Shown here: piece after piece, positions 43,902 through 63,594 of the stretch | Position numbering within the stretch: the first letter of the stretch is position 1 | Layout: every line of letters starts with the position of its first letter | Source of the DNA: Streptomyces caelestis | Lineage (GTDB): Bacteria > Actinomycetota > Actinomycetes > Streptomycetales > Streptomycetaceae | Length of the DNA stretch: 64,000 bases | NCBI RefSeq assembly: GCF_001279005.1 | Contig: NZ_LGCN01000063.1 | Location: forward strand, 94,087-158,086 | Direction of reading: 5' to 3' | The notes under the pieces: generated by a model | The model's input: the letters and a program-made list of their open reading frames with translations, nothing else | Told to the model about the DNA's origin: nothing | Databases searched by the model: none | Program-made: the position numbers and the translations under genes

Positions 43902-45230
43902 ATGCAGGCAGAACCGAGGAAATCGCTGGTGGGGGAGGAGTACGAGGTCGAGGTCGGCCCCGTCGCCCACGGCGGTCACTGCATCGCCCGTACGTCCGAG
44001 GGCCAGGTCCTCTTCGTCCGGCACACCCTGCCCGGTGAACGCGTCGTCGCCCAGGTCACGGAGGGCGAGGAGGGGGCCCGCTTCCTCCGCGCGGACGCGG
44101 TGCGGGTGCTGGACGCCTCCAAGGACCGGATCGACGCCCCCTGCCCCTTCGCCGGCCCCGGCCGCTGCGGCGGCTGCGACTGGCAGCACGCCAAGCCGGG
44201 CGCCCAGCGCCGGCTGAAGGGCGAGGTCGTCGCCGAGCAGCTGCGGCGCCTGGCCGGGCTCACCCCGGAGGAGGTCGGCTGGGACGGCACCGTGATGCCC
44301 GCCGAGGGCGACAAGGTCCCCGCCGGCCAGGTCCCGGCGTGGCGCACGCGCGTCCAGTACGCCGTCACCGCCGACGGCCGCGCGGGACTGCGCCGGCACC
44401 GCTCGCACGAGGTCGAGCCGATCGACCACTGCATGATCGCCGCGGAGGGCGTCAGCGAGCTGGGCATCGAGAAGCGGGACTGGACGGGCATGGACTCCGT
44501 CGAGGCGATCGCCGCGACCGGCTCCCAGGACCGCCAGGTGGTCCTGACCCCCAAGCCCGGCGCCCGCCTCCCCCTGGTCGAGCTCGACCGCCCCGTCTCG
44601 GTCATGCGCGTCGACGAGCGCTCCGGTCAGCTCCACCGCGTCCACGGCCGCCCCTTCGTCCGCGAACGCGCCGACGGCCGCACCCACCGCGTCGCGGGCG
44701 GCGGCTTCTGGCAGGTCCACCCGAAGGCCGCCGACACCCTCGTCACCGCCGTCATGCAGGGCCTGCTGCCCCGCAAGGGCGACATGGCCCTCGACCTGTA
44801 CTGCGGCGTCGGCCTGTTCGCCGGCGCCCTGGCCGACCGGGTCGGGGAGTCGGGCGCGGTCCTCGGCATCGAGTCCGGCAAGCGCGCGGTGGAGGACGCC
44901 CGCCACAACCTCGCGGACTTCCCCCGCGTCCGCATCGAACAGGGCAAGGTCGAGTCCGTCCTGCCCCGCACGGGCATCACCGAGGTCGACCTCGTCGTCC
45001 TCGACCCCCCGCGGGCCGGGGCCGGCCGCAGGACGGTGGAGCACCTGTCGTCCCTGGGCGCGCGTCGGATCGCGTACGTGGCGTGCGACCCGGCGGCGCT
45101 GGCCCGGGACCTGGCCTACTTCCGGGACGGGGGGTACCGGGTGCGGACGCTGCGGGTGTTCGACCTGTTCCCGATGACGCATCATGTGGAGTGCGTCGCG
45201 ATTCTGGAGCCTGCGGCAAAGGGCCTCTGA
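43902..45230 (+). CDS. TrmA/RlmD-family RNA (uracil-5-)-methyltransferase
   Basis: 442 aa from ATG at 43902; an in-frame ATG at 43881 has no ribosome site. N-terminal TRAM domain (YEVEVGPVAHGGHCIARTSEGQVLF, GERVVAQVTEG), iron-sulfur cysteines in PCPFAGPGRCGGCDWQH, SAM domain DLYCGVGLFAGALADRVG, VLDPPRAGAG and the catalytic VACDPAALARDL with its Cys. It ends with FPMTHHVECVAILEPAAKGL. It methylates uridine in tRNA or 23S rRNA. Its last 20 codons are the target duplicated at 54273 and 63510. Confidence 0.94.
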   Translation: MQAEPRKSLVGEEYEVEVGPVAHGGHCIARTSEGQVLFVRHTLPGERVVAQVTEGEEGARFLRADAVRVLDASKDRIDAPCPFAGPGRCGGCDWQHAKPGAQRRLKGEVVAEQLRRLAGLTPEEVGWDGTVMPAEGDKVPAGQVPAWRTRVQYAVTADGRAGLRRHRSHEVEPIDHCMIAAEGVSELGIEKRDWTGMDSVEAIAATGSQDRQVVLTPKPGARLPLVELDRPVSVMRVDERSGQLHRVHGRPFVRERADGRTHRVAGGGFWQVHPKAADTLVTAVMQGLLPRKGDMALDLYCGVGLFAGALADRVGESGAVLGIESGKRAVEDARHNLADFPRVRIEQGKVESVLPRTGITEVDLVVLDPPRAGAGRRTVEHLSSLGARRIAYVACDPAALARDLAYFRDGGYRVRTLRVFDLFPMTHHVECVAILEPAAKGL

Positions 45231-45235
45231 CCTGC
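45168..45235 (+). repeat. Attachment-like direct repeat, copy A (attL of island 1, in host gene)
   Basis: 68 bases covering the last 20 codons and stop of the methyltransferase gene plus 5 bases. Copy B (54273-54340) matches at 64 of 68 positions and copy C (63510-63577) somewhat less. The best conserved block is GTGGAGTGCGT.GCGATTCTG and the bases just after it. This copy is the one in the intact gene. Confidence 0.88.
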
Positions 45236-45445
45236 TGATTTATTGATTCCCCAGGTGGCGGGCGGGTCGTGCCGACATGTTTCCGCAGGTCTACCGGGTG
45301 GAGCATGTTGAGGTTTCCATCACGTGTTTCACCTGCGACTTCGTAGTGGGGCGTGGGTCGAGAACGCTCTGTTCAACGCCGTCAGGGACGGGTTCCGGAA
45401 ATGTCTTGACGCTCGTTCGACGCTGCATCCGACGGAGTGTCAGGT
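45236..45445. other. Conserved left-end segment of island 1
   Basis: About 210 bases similar to 54341-54555 but not to anything else in the window. The best shared block contains GGAAATGTCTTGACGCTCGT and CCGACGGAGTGT. The 19-base motif TTGACGCTCGTTCGACGCT lies at 45406-45424, itself an internal repeat of GACGCT. No gene. It probably contains recombination or end-recognition sites. Confidence 0.7.
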
Positions 45446-45809
45446 GGTCGTTCCGGATCAGATGGCGCGGGTCAACCGACTTGTCGGGCTCGACCCGTCG
45501 AGCAGTGCGTCGGCCGCGAAGTTCCATGTGGTGACGTGCCGTCCAGGGGACGAGAAATCGGCTGGTCAGCCTGGGTCGGGCACGTGGGTGAGCCGGTCGA
45601 GGGCTGTGGTGATGTGACCGGCCCGGGGCCAGTGCCCGGCCAGGCGGAGGATTGACCGACGACCGGTGGTGACGAGCTGTCCGGCCGTGGTCAGAGGCGG
45701 AGCCGCGGTCGGCGAGGCTCCCAGAGCGGCATCGATGTGCGAGGACGGATTTCCTGGTGCGGGTCTCGCTGAGTGCGGGGCAGGGGCCATGGACCTGTCC
45801 GGCGGCTGG
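45446..45809. other. Non-coding stretch at left of island 1
   Basis: No intact gene; it contains only a short transposase-like remnant (45566-45700) on the minus strand. Confidence 0.5.
45566..45700 (-). pseudogene. Transposase C-terminal remnant (IS1380-like)
   Basis: The minus strand reads LTTAGQLVTTGRRSILRLAG then HWPRAGHITTALDRLTHVP, which resembles the C-terminus of IS1380-type transposases. Everything upstream of this is missing, so it is a short fossil. Confidence 0.45.
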
Positions 45810-46673
45810 CTACGGTTCCAGGAATTCGAGCGCCCGCGGGACGAATCTGGCGTGGTACTGGAAGATCCCGCCGTGTCCGGCGTCGGGGTAGAGGGGTTCG
45901 AGTTGGCCTTGGGGCAACCGGGCCGCCAGGTCGACTGTGTTGACGCTCGGGACCATGCGATCGCTCTCGCCGTTGGCCACCAGGACCGGTTGGTGGATGA
46001 GGGACAGATCGGCCGGTGCCCGGCGGCCCCAGTGGTGGATGGCCTTCAGCTGGGCGCGGAACGATGAGAGCGAGATGGCTTTGTCGCGGTCGTTCGTGCG
46101 TTCCTTCAGCCGGTCCAGGAAGGCGCGGGCCGCTCGGCGGCCACCGGCGGTGTCGGTGAAGAACAGGTACTGCTTGGGGTCCTTGCGGGTCAGGGCGGCC
46201 TTGGTGGTGTCCTTGATGGTGAGGCTTGTGACCTTGTCGATCCCGGGCCCGCCGGCGGGTCCCGTGCCCGCGAGGATGAGTTTGCGCACAAGCCCGGGTT
46301 CTTCCGCCGCGATGACTTGGGCGATGAAGCCGCCCATCGACAGTCCGAGCAGGTCGACCCTGTCGTACCCGAGGGCCCGGATGAACAGCACGGTGTCGCG
46401 AGCCATCGCCTCGATCGTGTCGGGTGTGGAACCGCCGGACGCGCCGACGCCGCGGTTGTCGAAGGTGATCACGGGACGCCGGGCGGCGAGTCCGTTGACG
46501 ACGCGCGGGTCCCAGTTGTCCAGGACTGCGGACAGGTGGTTGAGGAGGATCAGGGGCACGCCGTTGTCCGGGCCGAGCCGCCGGTAGGCGAAGGTCACGC
46601 CACGCACGGACACGGAGCGGTTCGGCGTGTTCTTGTACGACATCGGGGCGGGTGAACTGGGCGGTGTGCTCAT
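45810..46673 (-). CDS. Alpha/beta-fold hydrolase
   Basis: 287 aa from ATG at 46673; ATG at 46643 is an alternative. Oxyanion region LILLNHLSAVLDNWDP, nucleophile elbow GLSMGG, acid NGESDRMVP and His in DAGHGGIF complete the catalytic triad. Close in style to chloroperoxidase/esterase-like hydrolases. Last gene of the TetR-flanked redox set on the minus strand, 92 bases after the quinone reductase gene. Confidence 0.9.
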   Translation of the reverse strand: MSTPPSSPAPMSYKNTPNRSVSVRGVTFAYRRLGPDNGVPLILLNHLSAVLDNWDPRVVNGLAARRPVITFDNRGVGASGGSTPDTIEAMARDTVLFIRALGYDRVDLLGLSMGGFIAQVIAAEEPGLVRKLILAGTGPAGGPGIDKVTSLTIKDTTKAALTRKDPKQYLFFTDTAGGRRAARAFLDRLKERTNDRDKAISLSSFRAQLKAIHHWGRRAPADLSLIHQPVLVANGESDRMVPSVNTVDLAARLPQGQLEPLYPDAGHGGIFQYHARFVPRALEFLEP

Positions 46674-46765
46674 GGCCGGGTCCTGAGGTGGTGTGGCGGG
46701 GGAGTGGGGTGTGCAGGGACTTGTCGCTGTGGGAGGTGACTGGCGCCTGGGACTCGTTTTCACCC

Positions 46766-47770
46766 TTACGTCATCGCGACGACGACTTTGCCGGCCTTTG
46801 CCCGTCCCCTCTCGACGTATTCCATGGCGTGGAGGGTTTCTTCGAACGGGAAGACGCGGTCGACGACGGGGCGGATCTTCCCGGTGTCGATGAGGGCAGT
46901 GAGTTCGCGCAGTTGGTCGCCGCTGGCCTTCATGAACAGGAACGAGTACGTCACGCCGTGGCGTTTGGCGTTGCGCCGGGTTTTGAAGCTGAGGGCGGTC
47001 ATGGCCAGGCGGAGGATCGGGTTCGCGCCCAGTTCGTGGGCGAAGGCCGGGTCGGGCGGGCCCGCGACGCTGATGGCTGTGCCACCGGTCTTGAGAACGC
47101 GCAGGGACTTGGCGAGGTTCTCGCCGCCGAGGCTGTCGAGGACGACGTCGTAGCCGTCGAGAAGCTCTTCGAAGTCCTGGGCGCGGTAGTCGACGACGAC
47201 GTCCGCGCCGAGGTCCTTGGCCAAGTCGACCTTGGCGGTGCTCACGGTGGTGGCCACATGCGCGCCCAGCGCCTTGGCCAGCTGGACGGCGACGGAGCCG
47301 AGGCCGCCGGCGCCCGCGTGGACGAGGACCTTCTGGCCCGGCTGCACGCGTGCCCGCTCGACCAGTGCCTGCCATGCGGTCAGGGCGACCAGGGGGAGGG
47401 AGGCGGCCTCGGCCATGGTGAGGGTGACCGGTTTGGGCGCCAGGTCGTCCTGGTGGACGGCGATGAGTTCGGCGAAGGTACCGATGCGGTCCTTGTCGGG
47501 CCGGGCGTAGACCTCGTCGCCCACCGCGAAGCGGGTGACGGACGGGCCGACCCGGACGACCGTCCCGGCGAGGTCGTTGCCCAGAATGAGCGGGAGGCGG
47601 TATGGCATGAACGCCTTGAAGTCCCCGTTGCGGATCCTGATGTCCAGCGGGTTCACGCCCGCCGCGTGGATCTTGACCAGGACGTCGTCGGCACCTACCC
47701 GGGGGTCGGGTGTTTCGGTGGCACGCATCCCGGCCTGGTCGCCGTACTTCTCGACCAGGAAAGCTTTCAT
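46766..47770 (-). CDS. NADPH:quinone reductase-like MDR oxidoreductase
   Basis: 334 aa from ATG at 47770 with GGAG upstream. Zinc-free medium-chain reductase: MKAFLVEKYGDQAG, AGVNPLDIRIRNG, LGNDLAGTVVRVG, nucleotide-binding VLVHAGAGGLGSVAVQLAKALGA and VLDSLGGENL. Predicted to reduce quinones or enones with NADPH. Fits a detoxification operon with the neighbouring SDR and aldo/keto reductase genes. Confidence 0.92.
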   Translation of the reverse strand: MKAFLVEKYGDQAGMRATETPDPRVGADDVLVKIHAAGVNPLDIRIRNGDFKAFMPYRLPLILGNDLAGTVVRVGPSVTRFAVGDEVYARPDKDRIGTFAELIAVHQDDLAPKPVTLTMAEAASLPLVALTAWQALVERARVQPGQKVLVHAGAGGLGSVAVQLAKALGAHVATTVSTAKVDLAKDLGADVVVDYRAQDFEELLDGYDVVLDSLGGENLAKSLRVLKTGGTAISVAGPPDPAFAHELGANPILRLAMTALSFKTRRNAKRHGVTYSFLFMKASGDQLRELTALIDTGKIRPVVDRVFPFEETLHAMEYVERGRAKAGKVVVAMT

Positions 47771-47905
47771 AGTTGTCTCCGTTCCGTTTCCCGTCCGTGA
47801 AAGGCCGGGGTCTCCGCTCGCCCCGGGCTTCTCCCCGTACGAGACAGCTGTGTTGCTCTCCTGGCTGCGGCGCGGGCGCACCTCGTCCTCAGCCGCGTTC
47901 ACCCA

Positions 47906-48961
47906 TCAGGCCACCGGCACGACCGGGGCGGTGACGCGGTCGGCGGCGCCTCCTTGGAGGCGGTCCAAGGTGGCGGCGATCCCTTCGTGGGGAACGCCGA
48001 GTGGCACCGCGCTGACCTCGGCCAGGCGGGTGTACTGCTCGTCGGTCAGCTGGACGTCGAGGGCGCCGAGGTAGCTGTCGAGCTGGGAGAGACTGCGCGG
48101 GCCGATGATCGGGACGAGCGTGGCAACGGAGCGGGCGGCGCGTTCGCGCACCCAGGCCACCGCCACCTGGGCGGGCGTCACGCCGGTCTCCCCTGCGATC
48201 GCCAGGACGGTGTCGACGACGGCGGTCTTCTGGCCGGTGCTCTCGGTGTGGATGACCATGCCCAGGTCGCTCAGGCGCCCCTCGGCGGAGCCGCGGTACT
48301 TGCCGGTGAGCAGTCCGCCGCCGAGCGGGGACCACAGGGCTGCGCCGAGCCCGAGGCTCTCGGCCATGGGCAGGAGCTCACGGTCGGCCGTGCGCTCGAC
48401 GAGGCTGTACTCGTGCTGGACGCCCACGACAGGGACCCAGTTCTTCAGGTCCGCGAGGGTCACCGCGCGCGAGACGCGCCAGGCGGGGAAGTTGGACAGC
48501 GCGGCGTGATGGATCTTGCCGGCGCTCACCAGGTCGTCGAGCCCGCGCAGGAGTTCCTCCATCGGAGTGAGGTCGTCGGGGAAGTGCACCCACAACAGGT
48601 CGATGTAGTCGGTCCCCAGGCGCTTCAGGCTGGCCTCGACCGAGGCGACCATGGTCTTGCGGCTGTTGCCGGTCTTGGAGATGTCCGGCTGCGGGGCGGC
48701 GCCGAGGGTGAACTTCGTGGCCAGGACGAAGTGGTCGCGGTCGGCGGAGACCAGCTTTCCGGTCAGTTCCTCCGACTCGCCGAACTGGTAGGCGTCCGCG
48801 CTGTCGAGAAAGGTCCCGCCGGCTTCGGCGAACCGGTCGAAGATCCGCCGGGCCTCCTCGGGCTCGGCGCCTGCGCCCCAACCGGTGCCGAAATTCGCGG
48901 TGCCGAGCGCGTACTCGGAGACGCGCAGTCCGGTCCGGTGACCGAAGGTCGTGTAGCGCAT
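47906..48961 (-). CDS. Aldo/keto reductase
   Basis: 351 aa, ATG at 48961. TIM-barrel AKR with the catalytic tetrad visible: FLDSADAY (Asp, Tyr), LATKFTLG (Lys) and LLWVHFPDD (His). The NADP-site sequence AWVRERAARSVATLVPIIGPRSLSQL lies near the C-terminus. It is in the same minus-strand set as the SDR gene (55 bases upstream). Confidence 0.93.
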   Translation of the reverse strand: MRYTTFGHRTGLRVSEYALGTANFGTGWGAGAEPEEARRIFDRFAEAGGTFLDSADAYQFGESEELTGKLVSADRDHFVLATKFTLGAAPQPDISKTGNSRKTMVASVEASLKRLGTDYIDLLWVHFPDDLTPMEELLRGLDDLVSAGKIHHAALSNFPAWRVSRAVTLADLKNWVPVVGVQHEYSLVERTADRELLPMAESLGLGAALWSPLGGGLLTGKYRGSAEGRLSDLGMVIHTESTGQKTAVVDTVLAIAGETGVTPAQVAVAWVRERAARSVATLVPIIGPRSLSQLDSYLGALDVQLTDEQYTRLAEVSAVPLGVPHEGIAATLDRLQGGAADRVTAPVVPVA

Positions 48962-49015
48962 GAGATGTCCTTGCAGGGGTGTGAGGGTGGTCGCGCCGGG
49001 GTGGAGGGGCGAGCG

Positions 49016-49708
49016 TCAGTCCGCGTTCGGCCGGGGTGCCGCGGACAGGCTCTGCTTGACGTACCGGCTGGTCTCGTCGGCGAGGATCTCGGGCAGGCCG
49101 GTCTCGATGCCGTACAGGGCCTGGGCCGCGACGTCGGCGGCGGCGACCTTCTGATCGGCGGGCACGCCGGCGGCCATGTCGGTGTCCATGTAGCCGACGT
49201 GCAGCGCCGAGACGGTGATGCCGCGCGGTGCCAGCTCCTCACGGGTCGCGTCGCTCAGCGCCCAAGCGGCGGCCTTGGACGCGGCGTAGGAGCCGAGTCC
49301 TGCCGGGTGGAACCAGGACAGGGCGGACAGGACGTTGAGCACGGCGCCGCCGCCGTTGCCCTCGATCACGGGGGCGAAGGCTCGGGTCGCGGCGAGCGGG
49401 CCGAAGAAGTTGGTCTCCATCTCCCGGCGCACCTCAGCCACGTCGCCTCCCATCAGCGTCGCGCCGGTGGAGATGCCCGCGTTGTTGATCAGCAGTGTCG
49501 CGTCGGACGCCAGGCGCGCGGCCTCTTGTGTCGACGCCTCGTCCGTGACGTTCAGCCGTAGCGGGAGGACGCCCGGCACGTCGACCGTCTCGGGGCGTCG
49601 GGCCGCGCCGTACACCTTCGCGCCGCGCTCGACGAGCTGGGCGGCCAAGTGCCGCCCGAAGCCCCGATTGGCGCCGGTGACGACTGCGACCGCGTTCCTC
49701 AGTTCCAT
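49016..49708 (-). CDS. SDR-family oxidoreductase
   Basis: 230 aa from ATG at 49708 with AGGAG 6 bases upstream. Cofactor motif VVTGANRGFGRHLA, NNAG (LLINNAGIS), catalytic Ser in NVLSALSWF and YAASK. Length is normal for a classical SDR. It is the first gene of the redox set and is divergent from the TetR gene, with the operator between them. Confidence 0.93.
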   Translation of the reverse strand: MELRNAVAVVTGANRGFGRHLAAQLVERGAKVYGAARRPETVDVPGVLPLRLNVTDEASTQEAARLASDATLLINNAGISTGATLMGGDVAEVRREMETNFFGPLAATRAFAPVIEGNGGGAVLNVLSALSWFHPAGLGSYAASKAAAWALSDATREELAPRGITVSALHVGYMDTDMAAGVPADQKVAAADVAAQALYGIETGLPEILADETSRYVKQSLSAAPRPNAD

Positions 49709-49753
49709 GTGCACTCCTGGTCGTGGCGGGCGCCGTGGGCTACCCGCAGTTTT

Positions 49754-49777
49754 TTTAGATTATGGAGGCAATCTAAA
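49754..49777. promoter_or_regulatory. Probable TetR operator
   Basis: TTTAGATT and AATCTAAA form perfect 8-base arms around 8 bases, in the gap between the divergent SDR and TetR genes. The size and position suit a TetR dimer controlling both promoters. TATGAT at 49786-49791 may be the -10 box of the TetR gene. Confidence 0.75.
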
Positions 49778-49824
49778 CATGAGCCTATGATAGATGCCAG
49801 TCGACATCCAAACGGGAGGTGGTC

Positions 49825-50385
49825 ATGGGCCGCGTATCGCAGGCGCAGGCGGAGGAAAACCGCAGGCGGGTGGTGGACACCGCATCCCGCCTGTTCCGGG
49901 AGCAGGGCATTCAGGTCAGCGTCGCCGACCTGATGAAGGCGGCCGGTCTGACCCACGGCGCTTTCTACAAGCAGTTCGCCTCCAAGGAGGCACTCGTCGA
50001 CGAGGCCACCGCCCACGCCTTCGCCGAGCTCGCCCAGCGCTACAGCGACGGACTTGAGCGGCACGACGGGCAGCGCGCCGCCGCCCAGCAGACGCTGATC
50101 GACGCCTACCTCTCCGTCGAGCACCGCGACGCCCCGGCGGACGGCTGCCCGGTCGCCGCGCTCGCCATCGACATCGCGCGCGAGGGCGGGGGGCGCGAGG
50201 CCCGTCGCGTCTACGCCGAGGGGGTGGCCGACTTCGCCGATTTCCTGGCCGGTGACGACCAGGACGGCATCGTCCGCCTCTGCACCCTGTTCGGTGCGCT
50301 GGTCCTGTCCCGGGCCACCAAGGGCTCCCCGCTCTCCGGTGAGATCCTCGCCGCCGCGCACGCGGCCTTGACTGAAGCGGGCTGA
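49825..50385 (+). CDS. TetR/AcrR-family regulator
   Basis: 186 aa from ATG at 49825 with GGGAGG upstream. N-terminal HTH: RRRVVDTASRLFREQGIQVSVADLMKAAGLTHGAFYKQFASKEALVDEA. The C-terminal ligand domain contains DGCPVAALAIDIAREGG and LCTLFGALVLSRA, typical of the subgroup beside redox enzymes. Probably represses the divergent SDR-AKR-quinone reductase-hydrolase genes until a reactive ligand binds. Confidence 0.93.
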   Translation: MGRVSQAQAEENRRRVVDTASRLFREQGIQVSVADLMKAAGLTHGAFYKQFASKEALVDEATAHAFAELAQRYSDGLERHDGQRAAAQQTLIDAYLSVEHRDAPADGCPVAALAIDIAREGGGREARRVYAEGVADFADFLAGDDQDGIVRLCTLFGALVLSRATKGSPLSGEILAAAHAALTEAG

Positions 50386-50660
50386 TCACGGGCGCGTGGC
50401 CGCGCCGTGACAGGGTGCCTCTGCCGTTTCGGCCGGGTGCGGCGCTCCGGGGAGGAAGGTCACCTGCGGCGCGGTCGTGCGGGGATCAGTAGTCACCTCG
50501 CTTGTCACGCCGTGGACCTCGGCCGGCAGCCGGGACGTGAGGATCTCCACGCGCGGGCCGCCGGCGGCAAGCCGGCCGTGGTCGAGCACGTAGAGGCGGT
50601 CGCAGTGGCAGGCGGCGAGGTTCAGGTCGTGCAGGGCGACGAGCACCGTGGCCGGCAGGG
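50386..50660 (-). pseudogene. 3' fragment of siderophore-type ABC ATPase gene
   Basis: On the minus strand, TVLVALHDLNLAACHCDRLY then VLDHGRLAAGGPRVEILT and AEVHGVTSEVTTDP match the end of FecE-like ATPases (H-loop onward). Walker A, signature and Walker B are missing. At about 50660 it meets a different gene fragment on the other strand. Confidence 0.65.
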
Positions 50661-50663
50661 GGC

Positions 50664-50854
50664 GCGGCGTGTTCAGGAACGGCGACGCCCCCGCCGTCGT
50701 CGCCCAGGCGATCGTCGCGGCGGCGACCGACACGAAGCCGAAGCCGCGCTACACCGCCGGCCCCCTGGCCGGACGCGCACGCGTACTGCGCCGTCTCGCT
50801 CCCGCCGGGGTCTTCGACCAGCAGATCCGCAAGATGAACCGGCTGGCCGGGTGA
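50664..50854 (+). pseudogene. 3' fragment of SDR gene
   Basis: VVAQAIVAAATDTKPKPRYTAGPLAG followed by RRLAPAGVFDQQIRKMNRLAG is the C-terminus of a classical SDR; the cofactor and catalytic parts are gone. Two unrelated gene ends thus lie back to back, showing an old deletion or insertion joint. Confidence 0.65.
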
Positions 50855-51250
50855 CGCACAGGCAACTGCCTGGGCTCTGCGAACAGCCGCCGCACCTCCA
50901 CCAGGCAGAGGACACCTTGATGCAAGAGCGCGGAGGAACGGCGTGCATGGCTAGTGCTGTGACCGGGAACGTTCGACGGGTCGGTGGTTGGGGCGGTTGG
51001 ACGGGCGGTGACGTCGGTTCCGACCGCTGGAGATGTGGTGGCTGAGCCTGTGCGGGTGCGCAGACTGACCGGTCGGGAAGGGCAGAAGCGGTGGCGTCCC
51101 GCCGGGTGGTGTAGCCGATCAAGGTGCCGAAATCCGCAGGTCGAGGGCATCGCTCTCGCCGGACCGGGGGTTCAACTGGCCTCAGCAGGGCGCCACGTGG
51201 GCGACCGCCTCTGCGGAAATCGTCAGGGACCTTGTACCGGAATACGTAAC
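50855..51250. other. Left flank and left end of IS630-type element
   Basis: No gene. It contains the left terminus at 50954 (GTGCTGTGACCGGGAACGTT) and non-coding DNA up to the transposase frame. Confidence 0.5.
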
Positions 51251-52365: not shown

Positions 52366-52557
52366 ATACAATCCGGCGAACCTAATGCGGTCACAGCACG
52401 AGCAGATGGTTGGTTGCTGTCGAGGCTCAGGATCCTGGGGCTTGGAAAAGGCTTTGACGCGCGGTTCGCTGTTCATCGATGGTGAGCCGGACGTCCGGAC
52501 CGAGCGGTCACGAACCGCCGCGTCGGCGACGGCTACACCACGGTGAGGGAGTTGTGG

Positions 52558-53409: not shown

Positions 53410-53519
53410 CATTCTGGCCCTACGCGATGATGTTGCACGGGAGCAGGAGTGGAGAATTTGCATGCCCCGACAACCCGGCGAACCTATGCGGTCACAGCAC
53501 TAGACGGGGTCACCGCCAA

Positions 53520-54040: not shown

Positions 54041-54272
54041 TATGGCGGCCGGGACGTCGTGCAGGTGACGATGTGCGAGCCGGCGCTCGGAGTGAGCGGC
54101 GCGGACCCGCGCGGGGTGAGCTGATTGCGGCGGCGTGTTCTGCACGGATCAGGAGGGATGGACTGTGTCGGTCGTGACGCTCGTTTGACGTTCTGGGCGC
54201 CCGCACGCGGGACAGCGAGCCGATAAACCGGCTCTGACCTGGAGTTTTCCGAGACCCGCTCGAGCCGACACC
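54041..54272. other. Conserved right-end segment of island 1
   Basis: Similar to 63275-63509 (shared blocks: TATGGCGGCCGG, CCTGTTCTGC/GTGTTCTGC, GTCGTGACGCTCGTTTGACG, GACCTGG..TTTTCCG, GCCGACACC). The motif TGACGCTCGTTTGACGTT is at 54175-54192, 80 bases before copy B of the attachment repeat. Confidence 0.7.
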
Positions 54273-54340
54273 TTCCCGATGACGCATCATGTGGAGTGCG
54301 TGGCGATTCTGGAGCCTGCTGCGAAGGGGCTCTGACCTGC
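54273..54340 (+). repeat. Attachment-like direct repeat, copy B (junction of islands 1 and 2)
   Basis: 68 bases with the same 20-codon reading as the methyltransferase end (FPMTHHVECVAILEPAAKGL, then TGA). Against copy A there are 4 differences, all synonymous. It is the right end of island 1 and the left end of island 2. Confidence 0.88.
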
Positions 54341-54599
54341 GGCTTTCTCGTGTTTTCCAGATGTGGCCGGTGGTGCTCGACCTGTTTCCCGAAGTTCACC
54401 GCGTGGAGCCTGTTGTAGGTGGCCGCCACGTGGCTCACCTGCGGGTTCGCAGCGGGAGCGTGAGTCCGGAACGCTCTGATCGCCTCCGTCGGAGACGGGT
54501 TCGGGAAATGTCTTGACGCTCGTTCGACGCTGTTTCCGACGGAGTGTGAGGTGGTCGTCCTGGGAATCGCACGCCTATGGACGTTCGCCCTGAGCGTCG
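54341..54599. other. Conserved left-end segment of island 2
   Basis: Similar to 45236-45445 over about 215 bases, with TTGACGCTCGTTCGACGCT at 54513-54531, 173 bases after the repeat (170 in island 1). No gene. Confidence 0.7.
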
Positions 54600-55009: not shown

Positions 55010-55600
55010 TCAGCCGGTCGCCGCGACCCCGGCTTTGGCGATGAGCATGTCCAGAAGCGAGAGCAGCGCACCGCGCGCGTCGTCACGGAGGCGGGCATCG
55101 AGCAAGTGGATGGGTGTGTTCGGGTCACGCAGATGCAGCGCCGCCCTGATCTCCTCGACGGTGTAGGGCTGTTCGCCGTGGAAACAGTTCGCGGCGACCA
55201 GGAACGGGACCCCTCGGTTCTCGAAGAAGTCGACGGCCGGGAAACTGCGGTCGAGGCGTCGTGTGTCGACAAGGACAATCGCCCCGAGTGCCCCGTTCAG
55301 CAGGTCGTCCCACATGAACCAGAAGCGCTCCTGGCCAGGTGTGCCGAACAGGTAGAGCACGACCTGTGCGTCGGTGAGGGTGATGCGGCCGAAGTCCATC
55401 GCGACGGTGGTGACCGCCTTGGACTCGATGCCGTCGAGGTCGTCGACGCCGACGCCCGCGCTCGTCAGCCGCTCCTCGGTGCGCAACGGCTCGATCTCGG
55501 AGACCGTCTCGATCAGGGTCGTCTTGCCGACGCCGAATCCCCCAGCGATGAGGATCTTGACGGGGTCCGCTTCATGGGCAGGGGCGTCATATCCAGGCAA
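55010..55600 (-). CDS. Conservon GTPase (CvnD type)
   Basis: 196 aa. Small Ras/Arf-like ATP/GTP-binding protein: G1 AGGFGVGKTTLIETVSEIEP, G3 LYLFGTPGQERFWFMWDDLL, then GAIVLVDTRRLDRSFPAVDFFE and FLVAANCF in place of NKxD. In conservons this protein works with a roadblock protein and a histidine-kinase-like protein as a membrane-bound heterotrimeric-G-protein analogue. It overlaps the CvnC gene by 14 bases. Confidence 0.95.
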   Translation of the reverse strand: MPGYDAPAHEADPVKILIAGGFGVGKTTLIETVSEIEPLRTEERLTSAGVGVDDLDGIESKAVTTVAMDFGRITLTDAQVVLYLFGTPGQERFWFMWDDLLNGALGAIVLVDTRRLDRSFPAVDFFENRGVPFLVAANCFHGEQPYTVEEIRAALHLRDPNTPIHLLDARLRDDARGALLSLLDMLIAKAGVAATG

Positions 55601-55958
55601 GGTTGTCCCTAATTTTCATGAGCAGGTGGACATTGGTGGTCTCGGCCCCTTCCAGGGGTGGCCGGTGCTCGATCAGTCCCCGATCCGCGAGTTCGCCGAG
55701 AAGAAGCGTCATGGGAGTGAGGCGGATGTGCATGCGCGCCGCGATCTCGGCGACCGCCATGCCGCCCGGAGGCGAGCACATCGCGAGGATGGCCTGCCAC
55801 TCGCTGGGCAGGCCGCCGTGGCCGTCCGCGACGGCCACCGCCGTGATCGTGGTGTCCATGGTGAGGGCGGTGTGTGCAGCCGCCGTACGTCCATCGGTCA
55901 GCGCGTACAGCCGCGTCCGGCGGTGGCCTCCCTCTCCCGGCCTGGGCTCGTCCGCCAT
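55587..55958 (-). CDS. Conservon DUF742 protein (CvnC type)
   Basis: 123 aa. DUF742 winged-helix-like protein: RRTRLYALTDGRTAAAHTAL, EWQAILAMCSPPGGMAVAEIAARMHIRL and LLLGELADRGLIEHRPP. The stop overlaps cvnD and the start overlaps the end of the roadblock gene by one base. Confidence 0.95.
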   Translation of the reverse strand: MADEPRPGEGGHRRTRLYALTDGRTAAAHTALTMDTTITAVAVADGHGGLPSEWQAILAMCSPPGGMAVAEIAARMHIRLTPMTLLLGELADRGLIEHRPPLEGAETTNVHLLMKIRDNLAWI

Positions 55959-56359
55959 TACGACGGCTGCGCCTGGCCGCGATCAGGCGTGCTCAGCCAC
56001 TCACCGAGCGCCTGGGCGGTGCGCACGGCTTCACCGCCCAGCTCCCCCAGCCGCGCCTTGCGGGAGGTCACCACGATGAGCGTGCTGCCCTCCCCGCACC
56101 CGACGATGCAGAGATAGCAGTCGTCCATCTCGACCAGCTGGCGGATCACCCGGCCGCCGTCGACCTCCCTGGATATCGCCTTCATCGTGGAAGCGATGCC
56201 GGAGGACGCGGCGGCTATGCGCTCCGCCTGGTCCCGTTCCAGCTCGTACGAGCTGAGCTTGATCCCGTCGTTGGACAGGAGCACGGCTCCCTGGATGCCG
56301 GCGATCCTGCTCAGGTTGTTGTCCAGGACGCTGTAGATCATGTCGTTCGTTGTCGTCAT
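55958..56359 (-). CDS. Conservon roadblock/LC7 protein (CvnB type)
   Basis: 133 aa. Roadblock/LC7 domain: IYSVLDNNLSRIAGIQGAVLLSNDGIKLSS, ASSGIASTMKAISREVDGG, DDCYLCIVGCGEGSTLIVVT. It regulates or recruits the partner GTPase. It overlaps the kinase gene by 4 bases. Confidence 0.95.
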   Translation of the reverse strand: MTTTNDMIYSVLDNNLSRIAGIQGAVLLSNDGIKLSSYELERDQAERIAAASSGIASTMKAISREVDGGRVIRQLVEMDDCYLCIVGCGEGSTLIVVTSRKARLGELGGEAVRTAQALGEWLSTPDRGQAQPS

Positions 56360-58731
56360 GGCTGATCCTGTCGGAGTTCTTCTTCCACTGTCTGAGTCCC
56401 GTGTTCGTAGTCCGCCCAGGCGTCGGCCACTTCTTCGGGTGTCGCCGCATCCTGGTGGACGCCGGTCTCCGGTGCGTGCGGCGCGCGGAGCTGCTCGACG
56501 ATGTGAGCCTGTGGGATCCGCTCAGGGAGGGCCGGCTTCGCGTCACCGTTCCGTGTCGGGGAAGGAACCGACGGCTTGCTCTTCACCGGCCGCTCGGGCA
56601 AGCGCTCCGGCGTCCTGCGGGCGGCCGCCCCGGTCCTCGCGTGCAGGACCAGCCCGGGCTTGCGTTCGTCGAACGGGCCCGGTGCCGGGGCGGGCATCGC
56701 CGCCGCGCGCGGCGCCTCCTTTCCCGCCCGGCCCGGTTCGGTCGGCACAAGGAGTTCCTTGGGAAGGATCACCACGGCCGACGTCCCCCCGTACACCGAG
56801 CGGCGCAGCGTCACTGTGGCCCCGAGCTGTTCGGCGATGTGGCCGACCACGAAGAGTCCGAGCCGGTGCGCGTTCTCCGCCAGGACGGAATACGGCGGGG
56901 CCGAGTGCAGACGCCCGTTCATCTCCTCGTAGGTTGCGGCGGTCACCCGAGGCCCGCGGTCCTCGATGTCGACCAACAGCCCGTCCGTCACCAGTTCGGC
57001 ACGGATGACCACCTTCGACTGCGGCGGGGAGAACCGGGTGGCGTTGTCCAGGAGTTCTGCCAGGAGGTGGCTGATCTCGCTGATCACCCGCGGTGCCACG
57101 CTGATCTCGTCCAGGGCCTGGCGCTCGATCCGCCGGAAGTCCTCGACTTCCGCGGCGGCTTCGCGCAGCAGGTCGGCGACGCGCATGGGCTCGGTGTGCG
57201 GATCGGGGATCTCTCCACCTGCCAGGATGAGCAGGTTCTCGATCTGCCGCCGCATGCCCACCGTCAGCTGGTCGGATCGCATCAACCGGGCGAGAAGCTC
57301 CTCGTCGTGCCCGAAGGCGTCCTGCAGTTCGTCGGTGAGGGCCAACTGGCGGCTGACCAGGTTTCCGGTGCGCGAGGCGATGCCCGCGGCGAACATACCG
57401 AAACCCTGACGCTCGGCCGCGAGCCGCGCATGCCCGTCGACGGATACGGAGACGACCCGGGCGAACGCGTCGCTGATACGTCCGACCTCGTCCTGGTCTC
57501 CGCTCACCGCGGGCAGCGCATCGTCGTCGACGGGCTGCCCGCGCTGGAGCCGGGCGACGACATCCGGCAGCGTGTCCTCGGCAATGGCCACCGTACGTTG
57601 GTGCAGACCGCGCAGGCGGCGGAGCACGGAGCGCGTGGTGAGCACGATGACGGCCGCGACGGCGATGACGGCTGCGCCGTTTCCGACGATCAGCCAGATG
57701 ACCTCGTTCTCCAACTGCGTGGCCTTGGCGTCGGCGTGCACGAGCAGTGCTCGCCCCTGTTTCGCGTTGAGCGCGGCAAGGCGCGGCGCGAACTCGTCGT
57801 ACGCGGCCTGCCAGGCGTCAGCTTCCTCGGGCAGCTCGATGCCGGACGCGGTGCTCTGGTGGTCGGAGATGACCACGTCCTCGAGACGGACCTTCGTCTT
57901 CCAGCCGTCCGAGGCGAAGACCTGGTCGTAGGCCGCTTTGTCCTCGGCCGTCAGATACGGCGCGACCCACTCGTCGTACTGGTACCGCTGGGATCCGACG
58001 GAGTTGACGAATTCGGCGAACCCGGAAGGGCTCAGACGCCTGGACGGCCCGGCCATGGCGAGGATGGTGGTCTCGCGTGCCACCATCTCGGACACCGTGA
58101 ACACCGTGACGACCAGACCGCTCTCCTGGATGAGCTCGGCGTCCTCCGCATGGCTGAACTCGTTCTGGTACACCCGGATGATGCGGTCGACGAGGTCGGA
58201 GTAGTAGCCGATCGTCCGATCCGCGTCCCCGCTGCGGGCGTCCGCGCGCTCGCGGAACGCGGCCAGATCCGCGAGGCTGTGCTTCAGCTCCGCGACGTAA
58301 TGATCGTCCTCGCGCCCGGTCGCCGCCAGAGCTCCGTCCGACACCCGGCGGAACTCGTCCGCGGCCCGGTCCGTGGCCGCGCGCTGCTCGCGCAACTCCT
58401 TCTCGGACACGGAGCCGCTCGCCCACCGTGTGGCGGTCATCGTCCGCTCAGCCTGCAGTTCGACCATCAGCCTGGTCAGGGGTACATCGATCCGCTCAGC
58501 GACTGCCACATCAGCGCGCAGTTGCTTTGACTGGTCTACCAGCGGCTGTGCGGTCATGGCCACTTGGGCACTCATCGCCAGAATAGGGACGATGGCCAGC
58601 CAAATGAGCAGCGTGCGCAGGCGCGGAGTACGCCGCCGACGAGTCGCCGGCTGCCCTCGTGTGCCTTCGGGTTCTATGGGAGACATCAATCCTCGGAGAG
58701 CGGGGAACCAGGGGGACGGCCCGACCGCCAA
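56356..58731 (-). CDS. Conservon sensor histidine-kinase-like protein (CvnA type)
   Basis: 791 aa, or 776 aa from the ATG at 58686 (SPIEPEGTRG). TM1 near LLIWLAIVPILAMSAQVAM; a long external nitrate/nitrite-sensing-like (NIT) helical domain (VELQAERTMTATRWASGSVSEKEL); TM2 VIWLIVGNGAAVIAVAAVIVL; HAMP; then a dimer helix with FGMFAAGIASRTGNLVSRQLALTDELQ, no standard H-box, and HATPase NATRFSPP, GLGLFVVGHIAEQLG-like sequence (HRLGLFVVGHIAEQLGA). A Pro-rich tail ends the protein. First gene of the cvnABCD set; the island context makes this an acquired conservon. Confidence 0.93.
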   Translation of the reverse strand: MAVGPSPWFPALRGLMSPIEPEGTRGQPATRRRRTPRLRTLLIWLAIVPILAMSAQVAMTAQPLVDQSKQLRADVAVAERIDVPLTRLMVELQAERTMTATRWASGSVSEKELREQRAATDRAADEFRRVSDGALAATGREDDHYVAELKHSLADLAAFRERADARSGDADRTIGYYSDLVDRIIRVYQNEFSHAEDAELIQESGLVVTVFTVSEMVARETTILAMAGPSRRLSPSGFAEFVNSVGSQRYQYDEWVAPYLTAEDKAAYDQVFASDGWKTKVRLEDVVISDHQSTASGIELPEEADAWQAAYDEFAPRLAALNAKQGRALLVHADAKATQLENEVIWLIVGNGAAVIAVAAVIVLTTRSVLRRLRGLHQRTVAIAEDTLPDVVARLQRGQPVDDDALPAVSGDQDEVGRISDAFARVVSVSVDGHARLAAERQGFGMFAAGIASRTGNLVSRQLALTDELQDAFGHDEELLARLMRSDQLTVGMRRQIENLLILAGGEIPDPHTEPMRVADLLREAAAEVEDFRRIERQALDEISVAPRVISEISHLLAELLDNATRFSPPQSKVVIRAELVTDGLLVDIEDRGPRVTAATYEEMNGRLHSAPPYSVLAENAHRLGLFVVGHIAEQLGATVTLRRSVYGGTSAVVILPKELLVPTEPGRAGKEAPRAAAMPAPAPGPFDERKPGLVLHARTGAAARRTPERLPERPVKSKPSVPSPTRNGDAKPALPERIPQAHIVEQLRAPHAPETGVHQDAATPEEVADAWADYEHGTQTVEEELRQDQP

Positions 58732-58892
58732 GACCGGACGCAGTCCTGGGTTCAGGACGGGGGAAGTCCGGTTCGGCTTTGACGCGACGTAATGTACCGA
58801 TCATAACCAGCCACACCGGAGAAACGGAGAGATGGCTTCCGTTGATCACGTGTGGTAAAGACGACGAAGCGTTGCCCATCGGACATCGGCGT

Positions 58893-59240
58893 TCACCTGA
58901 CGCCCGGGCACAGGCGTGCTCGTGCAGACAGGGCGACCCGCTCTCCCGGCCGCACGTCTTGGACCGACCGGCGAATGGGGCACCTGAGGCGTCGGGTGAC
59001 GGGCCGACCATCCGAGCGGTAGCGGTTCGTCGATCGTCGGATGAGCATGCGGAGCGTGACGAGAGCGGCGGCGAGGCGGGGGCGGAAGTCCACGGCCTCG
59101 CCGCTCTTCTCGGTGCAGCGCCGGAGCTTGGGGTAGTCGTTCATCCACGAGTGGGTGCGCTCGATCCCCCAGCGCTTGCCGGCCTGGATCGGGGCCGGCA
59201 CGCCCTTGCGGGCGATCTCGGCCGTGACCCCCGGCTGGGC
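58893..59240 (-). pseudogene. IS5-family transposase C-terminal fragment
   Basis: On the minus strand PAPIQAGKRWGIERTHSWMN, DYPKLRRCTEKSGEAVDF and LAAALVTLRMLIRRSTNRYR match the C-terminus of IS5-type transposases (catalytic Glu in ERTHSW). The N-terminal two thirds are absent. Confidence 0.8.
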
Positions 59241-59462: not shown

Positions 59463-59750
59463 TCAAGGGCTGGTGATCGCGCGCCCCGGCGGCTTGTCGG
59501 CATCGTGTTCCGGCGGCTGCAGCCGGCGGAGGACGGAACTCTGCGTTTCGATCTCTCGTGCGGAGAGCTTGTCGGTGAAGCGGCCGCGTACCGCGGCGTC
59601 CAGGCCGGGGTGCACGGTGGTGAGGGCCTGGCGTCCGGTGTCGGTGAGGGTGACATCGCCGGCGCGTTCGCGGGTGACGAGTTGGTGCTCGCCCATGCGG
59701 GTGAGCTGGTGGGAGATGCGTGTGCGGTCCCGGCCGAGCCGGCGGCAGAC
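59463..59750 (-). pseudogene. Truncated MarR-family regulator
   Basis: The minus strand reads RRLGRDRTRISHQLTRMGEH then QLVTRERAGDVTLTDTGRQA, LTTVHPGLDAAVRGRFTDKL and SAREIETQSSVLRRLQPPEH, i.e. the recognition helix, wing and C-terminal helices of a MarR regulator. The first 40-50 residues are missing because the other strand carries IS5 sequence from about 59751. Confidence 0.65.
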
Positions 59751-59944
59751 ACCCGGCCTTCGACCGCGAGCTCTACAAGGCCCGCAACGTCGTCGAGCGC
59801 TGCTTCAACCGGCTCAAGCAGTTCCGGGCCATCGCGACCCGCTTCGACGAACTCGCCGTCCGCCACCGGGCCGGACTCCACCTCGCAGCACTCATCCTCT
59901 GGCTCCGCGAACCCAGCCAAGATCATTTGTCAGACAGGTCCTAG
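59751..59944 (+). pseudogene. IS5-family transposase C-terminal fragment (second)
   Basis: HPAFDRELYKARNVVERCFN then RLKQFRAIATRFDELAVRHR and HLAALILWL is the end of another IS5-group transposase. The terminal sequence TTTGTCAGACAGGTCCTAG at 59926-59944 looks like the IS end. Its insertion cut the MarR gene. Confidence 0.75.
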
Positions 59945-60128
59945 ACCATGGGCCAGCCGGGTAATGCTGTGCTGCCCAGCAGGGCCATCGTCCGAGCCGG
60001 CCGCCTATCCGATGGTGGCGAGGACATCCTGGTCTGGGAGCACGTCCACGCTGGTGCGCCACGACCGGTGCCCGTCCACACGGCAGAGCACCCACAGACG
60101 CAGCACCCCGGCCGCCGCCCGGGCCGGA

Positions 60129-61661: not shown

Positions 61662-62200
61662 TCTGGCACGGGAGAGGACCCTTCCGAATGCCGGGCAGCG
61701 GGTCGCCGATCTGCTTAACTCCCGTCGTCATGGCGCAGTCGCGGTCATGTCCGATGACAACGGGTGTTGTTGGCCTGCCACCCGCCTCACCGCGATGCGC
61801 CGCTCACGGTCGGTCGGGCCAGAAGGTCGACGAAGGCAGCCAGACGGAGGGCAGCTGTACCGCCCGGATCGGTGCGAGAGCGGCTGCTGCAGCGCGAAGG
61901 CCGACTGACCGCCGGATACGGCGTACGGGTATCCGGCGGCGCCTGGCACGCTGACCTGTTCACGCCGGCTTCTCGACGGCCGAGGACATGGAGACCAGCG
62001 TAGAGGGACTCGATGAGGGCCGGTTCCCGTTGATCACCGTGCCGATAGGGTGGCAGCCTGCCCGCCGACTGATTTCTCCCAGGGCACGGCCTGCCCGGTG
62101 TACTTGACGCGGGACAGACCAGCGATGCCCTGTTTTGCTACCTGCTCATTTCTTGGTTCTTGCTCTGATCGATTGCAGGTGTGGTCTCATCCGGACGTGA
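61662..62200. other. Non-coding stretch inside island 2
   Basis: About 540 bases between the nuclease-like gene and the AbiEii-like gene. No convincing gene in any frame. TTCTTGGTTCTTGCTCTGAT near 62152-62171 is an A/T-rich patch. The upstream region of the nuclease-like gene lies at the left. Confidence 0.4.
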
Positions 62201-62878
62201 TCAGTCGATGTCCGGATCATCGGCCTCTTCCAGGAGACGGGCCGCGAGGTCGTCGGCCCACTCCACAGCCCAAGCGCGAAGCGCGGTGATGGTGGCGTCA
62301 TCGAGCCCGTAGGCGAGGAAGGCTTCGTCGTCGGTCCACTCGGCGCCCGTGAGGTTCGACTGCAGGTCTTCGCGCTCGAAGCGGCCACGGGCATGTCGGC
62401 GGCCGAACTCTTCGAGCTCGGTGTTGGTCCAGCGGCGGGAGGCTGCGAACACGTCGATCAGGTCGCGGGGCGCTCCACGGTCGGCGAGGGCGCGGACCTT
62501 GGTCCCGATCACGTCCTCCTCCGCGAGGACGGGCCCGTACGGGCTCTGGGTGACCGGCCGCCAGAAGATCTCCTTGAGGATGTCGACTTCGCACTCCTGC
62601 CCGGTGGCCGGGTCGGACACGGTGAAGCGGGCGGACAGCGGGGCGGTCTCCAGCGCGTGCACCTTCCAGCCGCGGGCTTCCAGGCCGGCGCGGAGCGTGG
62701 CGGCGATGTCGGCCATGGGCGCCGGGTTCTCGGTGGCGACATCGAGGTCCTGGCTGGGACGGTTGACGAGGCGGTGTGCCCGCACGGCGTATCCGCCGGT
62801 GAGAACCAGTGGATACGGGGAACCGAGTGCGATCACATCCGCCAGGAGCCGCGTGTGCAGCTCCGGCATGTCCGTCAC
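62201..62878 (-). CDS. AbiEii/AbiGii-type nucleotidyltransferase (toxin-like)
   Basis: 225 aa from GTG at 62878, which overlaps the upstream stop (GTGA); ATG at 62869 is an alternative. DNA polymerase beta-like nucleotidyltransferase motifs: PLVLTGGYAVRAHRLVNRPS then QDLDV (the GG...DxD site), ECEVDILKE (third acidic residue), VIGTKVRALADRGAPRDLIDVFA. These are the features of the PF08843 family, toxins of the AbiE and MenT kind that modify tRNA ends. Located at the island's right end. Confidence 0.85.
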   Translation of the reverse strand: MTDMPELHTRLLADVIALGSPYPLVLTGGYAVRAHRLVNRPSQDLDVATENPAPMADIAATLRAGLEARGWKVHALETAPLSARFTVSDPATGQECEVDILKEIFWRPVTQSPYGPVLAEEDVIGTKVRALADRGAPRDLIDVFAASRRWTNTELEEFGRRHARGRFEREDLQSNLTGAEWTDDEAFLAYGLDDATITALRAWAVEWADDLAARLLEEADDPDID

Positions 62879-63267
62879 GCGGCTGCCCGGGTGCGGGAGG
62901 CGAGCTGGGGGAAGGCGTCTTCCCATACGGCGCGGACGGTGCGGCCGACGAGGGTGCGCAGCACCGGCCACAGCTGGAGGAGCAGGTCCTGGTTGAGGTA
63001 GCGGGGCAGGTCGTCGTGCAGGCCCTCGTGCAGGACGGTGCGGTACAGGCCCATGCGCTGACGCGGCTTGCCCAGGTCGTATGAGGTCATCCCGGACCAG
63101 GCCATGTGCAGCGGCAGATCCACGACACCGCGGGCCGGCCCGCGCAACTCGTCCAGCGACTCCGGCAGACGACGGCGGAACTTCTCCCGGTACAGCGCGA
63201 GGTCCTCGGCGACCGCGCCCGAGAGGTCGCTCGGCGTGTGTGCGGGGTGCTGTGGGCTGGAGGGCAT
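62875..63267 (-). CDS. Probable partner (antitoxin-like) of the nucleotidyltransferase
   Basis: 130 aa from ATG at 63267. Contains DLALYREKFRRRLPESLDEL, GVVDLPLHMAWSGMTSYDLG, YRTVLHEGLHDDLPRYLNQD and LWPVLRTLVGRTVRAVWEDA. No known domain that I can name. Its stop overlaps the toxin-like gene (GTGA), as expected for an antitoxin-first pair. CATAAT (63274-63279, minus strand) ends 6 bases before the ATG, so the mRNA may be leaderless. Confidence 0.68.
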   Translation of the reverse strand: MPSSPQHPAHTPSDLSGAVAEDLALYREKFRRRLPESLDELRGPARGVVDLPLHMAWSGMTSYDLGKPRQRMGLYRTVLHEGLHDDLPRYLNQDLLLQLWPVLRTLVGRTVRAVWEDAFPQLASRTRAAA

Positions 63268-63274
63268 GCCTCCA

Positions 63275-63509
63275 TTATGGCGGCCGGAAAAGTGGCGCGG
63301 GTCATGATGGGCGAGCTTGCGTCCGGAGCGAGCGGGAGCGGGCTCGCGGAGGGGATGGAGCTGGTCGTGGCAGCCTGTTCTGCCCGAAGAGGAGGAATGG
63401 ACTCTTGGTCGTGACGCTCGTTTGACGCTCTGGCCGCCCGTACGCAGGGTCGCGAGCTGAGACATAGGTCCTGACCTGGCCTTTTCCGGGACTCGCTCAG
63501 GCCGACACC
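63275..63509. other. Conserved right-end segment of island 2
   Basis: Homologous to 54041-54272. TGACGCTCGTTTGACGCT at 63412-63429 stands 80 bases before copy C, exactly as in island 1. Confidence 0.7.
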
Positions 63510-63577
63510 TTTCCGATGACCCACCACGTGGAGTGCGTGGCGATTCTGGAGCCTGCTGCAAAGGGGGCCTGACTTGC
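63510..63577 (+). repeat. Attachment-like direct repeat, copy C (right end of island 2)
   Basis: 68 bases; about 60 match copy B. It encodes FPMTHHVECVAILEPAAKG then Ala and TGA, so only the last residue differs from the host protein. Right boundary of the tandem array. Confidence 0.85.
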
Positions 63578-63594
63578 GTTTTGTGTGGTCCGTA

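What the first reader, a model, noticed from the sequence alone, without database searches (positions are those of the whole stretch)
45168..63577. Two tandem integrase-less islands at the end of a TrmA-family gene
Three 68-bp direct repeats at 45168, 54273 and 63510 split 18.4 kb into two units of 9,105 and 9,237 bp. The sequence left of copy B resembles that left of copy C, and the sequence right of copy B resembles that right of copy A, so these are two related elements in tandem, each with its own left and right end. Classical integrative elements duplicate the 3' end of their target gene in this way, but here no integrase, recombinase or replication gene is recognisable in either unit. 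This suggests cassettes moved by an enzyme supplied in trans. I do not know a described family with these ends.
Basis: partly seen in the sequence, partly recalled or inferred. Interest (0 to 1): 0.93.

Follow-up and report, generated by a model that had tools for sequence, protein, structure and literature searches.

The report
Tandem islands borrowing another island's integrase
At the end of an RNA-methyltransferase gene in a Streptomyces genome sit two DNA islands in a row, each bounded by copies of that gene's end and without a recognisable recombinase gene; they are likely moved by an integrase that related islands in other Streptomyces genomes encode.

Summary
Three copies of the 3' end of a TrmA/RlmD-like gene bound two islands in which no recombinase was recognised. 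They belong to a large island family: 55 of 78 Streptomyces loci examined (a high-scoring, not random, set) show the inner end signature or a second core within the stretch taken. In a close relative, G334, the methyltransferase gene is joined directly to unit 2; its left flank matches copy A (58/60) and its right flank copy B (59/60), as expected of a site without unit 1. In S. griseofuscus the cassette of unit 1 starts exactly at the repeat and lies directly behind an integrase-bearing element. That integrase family has a same-strand core nearby in 39 of 63 loci against 0 of 34 control loci, and the arm-like sites change with integrase clade. The own assembly has no close relative (best 34%). 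Best reading: CIME-like passenger islands moved in trans. Main gap: 23 of 24 distinct integrase-bearing elements have a right-end layout different from the window's units. Recombination itself is untested.

The parts
43881..45230 (+). TrmA/RlmD-like 23S rRNA (uracil-C5)-methyltransferase gene, the target; its last codons lie in core copy A
   Evidence: PF05958 and TRAM; TIGR00479 rumA 200.7 bits, cut-off 183.55
45161..45235 (+). Core copy A (gene-side junction); 68-bp repeat 45168-45235; strand exchange inferred within about 45183-45202
   Evidence: column comparison of cores
45407..45424 (+). Right-end arm-like motif pair of unit 1 (TGACGCT..CGACGCT, class II position)
   Evidence: background rate of such pairs
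45168..50413 (.). Cassette shared with S. griseofuscus (93.8%), G387 and, in part, G151; starts at the repeat
45810..46700 (-). alpha/beta hydrolase (approximate start)
   Evidence: PF00561
46766..47902 (-). zinc-binding alcohol dehydrogenase / quinone oxidoreductase family
47906..48961 (-). aldo/keto reductase
   Evidence: PF00248
49016..49714 (-). short-chain dehydrogenase
   Evidence: PF00106
49819..50385 (+). TetR-family regulator
   Evidence: PF00440
50414..54170 (.). Extra 3.76-kb segment between the shared cassette and the left end; holds an IS630-like transposase (51305-52546) and an NmrA-like protein (52543-53409)
54175..54192 (+). Left-end arm-like motif pair of unit 1, 91 and 80 bp before core B
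54266..54340 (+). Core copy B (junction of units 1 and 2); 68-bp repeat 54273-54340
54514..54531 (+). Right-end arm-like motif pair of unit 2
55010..58731 (-). Operon: GTPase-like (55010-55600), DUF742 (55587-55958), Roadblock/LC7 (55958-56359), NIT-domain histidine kinase (56356-58731); 54894-59019 is 96.8% identical to the first cassette of G334
59720..59944 (+). DDE transposase remnant (below Pfam cut-offs)
62201..62971 (-). AbiEii-like nucleotidyltransferase, part of an end module shared with other elements
   Evidence: PF08843; PADLOC AbiEii models, weak
62875..63267 (-). 130-aa partner of the AbiEii-like gene, no family found
63412..63429 (+). Left-end arm-like motif pair of unit 2
63503..63577 (+). 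Core copy C (distal junction); 68-bp repeat 63510-63577

Best explanation
The two units are tandem islands bounded by copies of the TrmA/RlmD-like gene's 3' end; no recombinase gene was recognised in them, and they were likely inserted, and could be excised, by a tyrosine integrase that related islands encode and would supply in trans. Shown: the repeats and paired ends; the same cassettes in other genomes, starting at the repeat and with other neighbours; a relative whose site lacks unit 1; an integrase family beside the same cores in related elements, mostly with an HTH_17 (excisionase-like) gene directly upstream; no close relative of it in this assembly. Inferred: the integrase reads the outer TGACGC pairs as arm sites and the imperfect inverted repeats of the core, and exchanges strands within about 45183-45202; each insertion restores the end of the gene, so the next element can land at the same place and arrays grow by tandem accretion. 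Inferred: with no integrase in this genome both units are now stranded until an integrase-bearing element arrives, for example on a linear plasmid.
For: Site without unit 1: in G334 the left flank matches copy A 58/60 (B 19/60) and the right flank copy B 59/60 (A 33/60); methyltransferase gene 95.8% identical over 945 bp. Cassette of unit 1 starts exactly at window 45168 in S. griseofuscus, behind an integrase-bearing element. Integrase family: 39 of 63 loci have a same-strand core within the stretch held, 0 of 34 distant-integrase loci; by hand comparison, 44 of 46 genomes have integrase and core on one contig, same strand, within 60 kb. HTH_17 gene upstream in 53 of 60 loci (HTH_17). Core columns: gene-side cores (83) and others (107) differ in columns 1-11 (p down to 5e-41), weakly in 19-22; no later column is below p = 0.0029. 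Arms covary with integrase clade: two or more TGACGCA in 5 of 6 loci of clade A, 0 of 24 others. Motif pairs are rare elsewhere: 29 of 15,552 windows of 270 bp. No serine recombinase in the arrays at the gene in 23 genomes; five of the 23 have none at all.
Against: Right ends of integrase-bearing elements are class I in 23 of 24 distinct elements, while both window units are class II; the one class II case (G159) has an integrase frame with a stop codon. 24 of 63 integrase loci have no same-strand core within the stretch held. Arm and clade covariation may reflect common descent. 23 of 78 loci show neither signature. Homologous recombination between cores could also move or delete units. No excision or integration was observed.
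Confidence: 0.72

Rival explanations
1. The units are decayed remnants of once autonomous elements (deletion derivatives) that are no longer mobile; the arrays are graveyards.
For: Broken integrase copies lie in some arrays or beside cores (G136, G159, G217, G364 fragments; a fragment 160 bp before a core on the S. sp. BHT-5-2 record). Unit 1 carries a 3.76-kb extra segment and unit 2 looks like a chimera.
Against: Ends with cores and motif pairs are kept while cargo varies; the same cassettes occur in different neighbourhoods and on linear plasmids.
Confidence: 0.15
2. Units spread and rearrange by RecA-dependent recombination between the cores and flanking genes, without a site-specific enzyme.
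For: Core copies are similar enough to pair; unit 2 combines two cassettes found apart elsewhere.
Against: It does not explain paired, spaced motifs at both ends, integrase and HTH_17 genes beside the same cores, or element-specific left halves of the cores.
Confidence: 0.08
3. Class II units have their own cognate integrase, not yet seen intact, and the class I integrase family serves only class I elements.
For: 23 of 24 distinct integrase-bearing elements are class I at the right end; the class II case G159 has an integrase of only 58% identity with a stop codon.
Against: Left ends of clade B integrase elements and of the window units are of one type, TGACGCT pairs at about -91 and -80; both classes share the core and the target.
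Confidence: 0.25

Closest known systems
CIMEs, cis-mobilizable elements (PMC5704250, passages read)
   Same: Islands without integration and transfer genes that keep attL and attR and sit in tandem at one target gene
   Different: Described there as decayed ICEs or IMEs; here the related integrase-bearing elements scanned have no transfer genes either, and the target is a TrmA/RlmD-like gene of Streptomyces
PAISt and its 105-kb module at bacA in Streptomyces (PMC4057263, passages read)
   Same: Streptomyces, 3' end of a protein-coding gene duplicated at each junction, tyrosine recombinase, a module that occurs alone without the integrase in other species
   Different: Other target gene and an 8-bp palindrome as site; modules of 105 and 569 kb against bounded cassettes of 0.9-18.9 kb here; whether its integrase is related was not tested
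AICEs and defective AICEs (PMC9513070 and PMC3218068, passages read)
   Same: Streptomyces integrated elements with tyrosine integrase and excisionase, accretion at one site; one AICE in rlmN, a 23S methyltransferase gene
   Different: AICEs carry traB and rep genes; none was found in the units or in the integrase-bearing elements scanned
SCC elements at rlmH in staphylococci (recalled; search listing only)
   Same: Cassettes in tandem at the 3' end of an rRNA-methyltransferase gene, some without recombinase genes
   Different: SCC uses serine recombinases (recalled); none lies in the arrays here

Membership tests
CIME | Flanked by attL and attR of one site | tested here: met
   Cores with left and right ends on both sides of both units
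CIME | No integration and transfer genes | tested here: met
   19 unit proteins against Pfam, whole-genome PF00589 and PF00239 scans; not every small frame was scanned
CIME | Derived from an ICE or IME by loss | tested here: inconclusive
   Related integrase-bearing elements found, but without transfer genes in L293, L305 and L326
CIME | Mobilised by a related element | not testable with these tools
   Needs an experiment; sequence support only
AICE | traB/FtsK-like transfer gene and rep gene | tested here: not met
   None in the unit proteins scanned or in L293, L305, L326
AICE | Tyrosine integrase plus excisionase | tested here: not met
   Absent from the window units; present in related elements
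SCC-like element | Serine recombinase (ccr type) in the element family | tested here: not met
   No PF00239 match in the arrays at the gene in 23 genomes
Prophage or phage satellite | Phage structural or packaging genes, or att and integrase in phages | tested here: not met
   No phage gene among the proteins scanned; best listed integrase identity 36% in phage records and 38% in IMG/VR loci; end sequence not in phages, exact core pattern not in viral contigs

The most novel reading that the evidence does not exclude
The end of one housekeeping RNA-methyltransferase gene is a genus-wide, integron-like depot in Streptomyces: a few small integrase-plus-excisionase islands without transfer genes serve a far larger pool of recombinase-free passenger cassettes (metabolism, signalling, toxin-antitoxin and defence-like genes) that share their att ends, stack in arrays and travel on linear plasmids.
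Probability: 0.45. Interest if true: 0.78.

Novelty: new variant of a known kind. Interest (0 to 1): 0.64.

Why it matters
It would give Streptomyces one predictable address where accessory genes are gained and lost, with a named integrase family to test, and would explain how genes without their own mobility machinery spread between species. An integrase with a conserved natural site would also be a tool: a match to the site lies in 389 of 392 Streptomyces genomes. No paper describing this site or family came up in the searches, which cover open PubMed Central texts only and were not exhaustive.

Tried and rejected
Serine recombinase: none in the arrays at the gene in 23 genomes. A 389-aa tyrosine recombinase of the G136 array was first taken as the candidate; it occurs in 41 of 392 genomes, many on other replicons or contigs, so it was dropped as the general enzyme. 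A 462-aa protein beside class I right ends in 7 loci matches no recombinase family. Phage origin is not supported. Host XerC/XerD acting on a dif-like site was considered and not tested. Gene calls rest on codon-position G+C and are approximate.

Biases and dropped rows: the 78 loci come from printed, high-scoring rows, not from a random draw; L039 (a distal stretch) and the window were left out, and two stretches are short (5.4 and 7.1 kb). Cassette lengths are cut by 20-kb stretches and include the window's two. Of 63 integrase loci 52 went into (11 partial matches left out) and 30 of these had a downstream core; L321 has an open frame but aligns poorly. Of 37 distal cores 22 show the left pair; 9 of the other 15 hit a loose inverted-motif pattern, some of them by chance inside genes. 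Of 25 right ends of integrase-bearing elements read one element was read twice, so 24 are distinct; three were read by eye because a simple pattern missed their core, and an overlooked core between gene and integrase cannot be excluded. In G066 tyrosine recombinases lie 25-34 kb from an off-site core, outside any bounded array. One plasmid record has a 60-80% match to the integrase: a C-terminal fragment 160 bp before a core match on the 2.8-Mb record of Streptomyces sp. BHT-5-2.
Full report
Observation. The three repeats are real and are the 3' end of the upstream gene, a TrmA/RlmD-like RNA methyltransferase (43881-45230; TIGR00479 over its cut-off). In a 75-bp register they are 45161-45235, 54266-54340 and 63503-63577. 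Each junction between units has a left end and a right end. At the left end two motifs of the type TGACGYT lie 91 and 80 bp before the core; at the right end two motifs lie 171-184 bp after it. Pairs of such motifs 9 or 11 bp apart occur in only 29 of 15,552 background windows of 270 bp. Of the unit proteins scanned none is a recognisable recombinase, replication or transfer protein. Unit 1 carries four enzymes and a TetR regulator, plus a segment with an IS630-like transposase. Unit 2 carries a histidine kinase, Roadblock, DUF742 and GTPase-like operon, a transposase remnant and an AbiEii-like gene with a partner.

A widely used site. The core matches in 389 of 392 Streptomyces genomes, as expected of a conserved gene end. 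I took up to 20 kb at this site in genomes with high-scoring matches. Of 78 such loci, 46 have a right-end motif pair next to the gene (21 class II as in the window, 25 class I with motifs at about +51, +62, +71, +82), and 9 more have a second core within the stretch; 23 show neither. G029 has four cores over 67 kb, and G379 has seven core matches, not all at one place. Bounded cassettes are 0.9 to 18.9 kb long, median 7.8 kb, n = 49 (longer ones are missed). Cores also lie far from the gene on some chromosomes and on two linear Streptomyces plasmids that share 17,990 bp at 99.98%. In a sample of the family Streptomycetaceae the left end also matches in at least four genomes of other genera (G406, G411, G412, G449), and G449 holds the integrase (1 of 101 genomes at E <= 1e-60).

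Movement as units. The decisive comparison is G334, whose methyltransferase gene is 95.8% identical to the window's over 945 bp. There the gene is followed directly by the right end and operon of the window's unit 2 (93.8% over 291 bp, 96.8% over 4.1 kb). Its left flank matches copy A in 58 of 60 bases and its right flank copy B in 59 of 60. That is the window without unit 1. The cassette of unit 1 occurs in S. griseofuscus DSM 40191, starting exactly at window 45168 (93.8% over 5.3 kb) and lying directly behind an integrase-bearing element; in G387 as the first cassette after the gene; and in part in G151. In all three the homology ends at window 50413, which is 126-129 bp before the next core there, whereas the window has 3.76 kb more before its left end. 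So unit 1 is that cassette with an extra segment, perhaps a fusion. Unit 2 combines the G334 cassette with an AbiE-like end module that also lies at left ends in L041, L043, L293 and L330.

The integrase. PF00589 scans of the own genome and 22 others placed a tyrosine recombinase inside an array, or directly beside a core, in three: G171, G270 (290 bp before an off-site core) and G136, the last of another family. The first two are relatives. A genus search shows 46 genomes with a relative at 58% identity or more, some broken by stops, plus a few fragments, and then a drop to about 35% (capped list). By hand comparison, 44 of these 46 have a core on the same contig and strand within 60 kb; G269 and G361 do not. 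Among 63 named loci 39 have a same-strand core within the stretch held; 0 of 34 loci of distant integrases have any core. Five complete integrase-bearing elements between two cores are 4.7, 6.1, 7.8, 13.8 and 14.8 kb long. An HTH_17 excisionase-like gene lies upstream on the same strand in 53 of 60 loci and a second integrase-like protein of about 222 aa in 23 of 60. R193, K224, H307, R310, H333 and Y342 are conserved at 98-100%; that these are the catalytic residues is recalled family knowledge. The proteins scanned from L293, L305 and L326 include no transfer, replication or phage gene; of L324 only two proteins were scanned. The own genome's best match to the integrase is 34%.

Mechanism. 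If strands are exchanged at one place in the core, gene-side and other copies should differ left of it and agree right of it. That is seen: 83 gene-end cores and 107 others differ strongly in columns 1-11, weakly in 19-22, and no later column goes below p = 0.0029. This puts the exchange in CAYGTGGAGTGCGTSGCGAT (window about 45183-45202), between imperfect inverted repeats that look like core-type sites. The outer TGACGC pairs look like arm-type sites and change with the enzyme: two or more TGACGCA in 5 of 6 loci with integrases at least 74.6% identical to that of G270, and in 0 of 24 others, which carry TGACGCT. The window's left ends carry the TGACGCT type, which points to a clade B enzyme. 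Common descent of integrase and end is a possible confounder.

What does not fit. Right ends of integrase-bearing elements are class I in 23 of 24 distinct cases, while both window units are class II. The class II case, G159, has an integrase frame with one stop codon. Class II cassettes may be served by the same enzyme or may have had another. This is the main uncertainty, and it is carried as a rival.

Place among known things. It works like CIMEs and like the modular PAISt island at bacA (passages). It is not an AICE, an SCC element or a prophage by the tests made. What I did not find described is the site, the integrase family, the small integrase-bearing elements without transfer genes, and the breadth of use. 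I rate it a new variant of a known kind.

Noticed in passing
window 50414-54170: A 3.76-kb segment sits exactly between the shared cassette of unit 1 and its left end; in three other genomes the cassette ends at 50413 and the left end follows at once. It holds an IS630-like transposase and an NmrA-like gene.
   Followed up: partly
window 62166-63582: An AbiEii-like gene with a 130-aa partner forms an end module that recurs at left ends of several elements (L041, L043, L293, L330), also of integrase-bearing ones.
   Followed up: partly
window 54378-54415 (also after copy A): Class II right ends contain a decayed second copy of the core between the true core and the motif pair.
   Followed up: no
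window 60129-61661: A 510-aa open frame with good codon bias matches no Pfam, NCBIfam or PADLOC family.
   Followed up: no
L293:8852-9520 and L305:8839-9513: A second, 222-224 aa integrase-like protein lies upstream of the HTH_17 and integrase genes in 23 of 60 loci.
   Followed up: partly
L293:11974-17472: An integrase-bearing element carries an 1832-aa frame that matches the PADLOC model TmtA with 1852 bits, so such islands can carry defence cargo.
   Followed up: no
L363 and L364: Two linear Streptomyces plasmids (NBC_01201, Alt3) carry cores of this family and share 17,990 bp at 99.98%.
   Followed up: partly
G136:C1:5672323-5673489 (L155): Another tyrosine recombinase of about 390 aa lies in the G136 array; relatives occur in 41 of 392 genomes.
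   Followed up: partly
G000:C226:27887-27959: The own genome has a stretch 84% identical to the left-end flank, without a core, on another contig.
   Followed up: no
L110, L096, L121 and others, right after the core: A short Fic/Doc-like gene (name recalled from its sequence) recurs close behind the core in 9 loci, with a small antitoxin-like gene in 6 loci.
   Followed up: no
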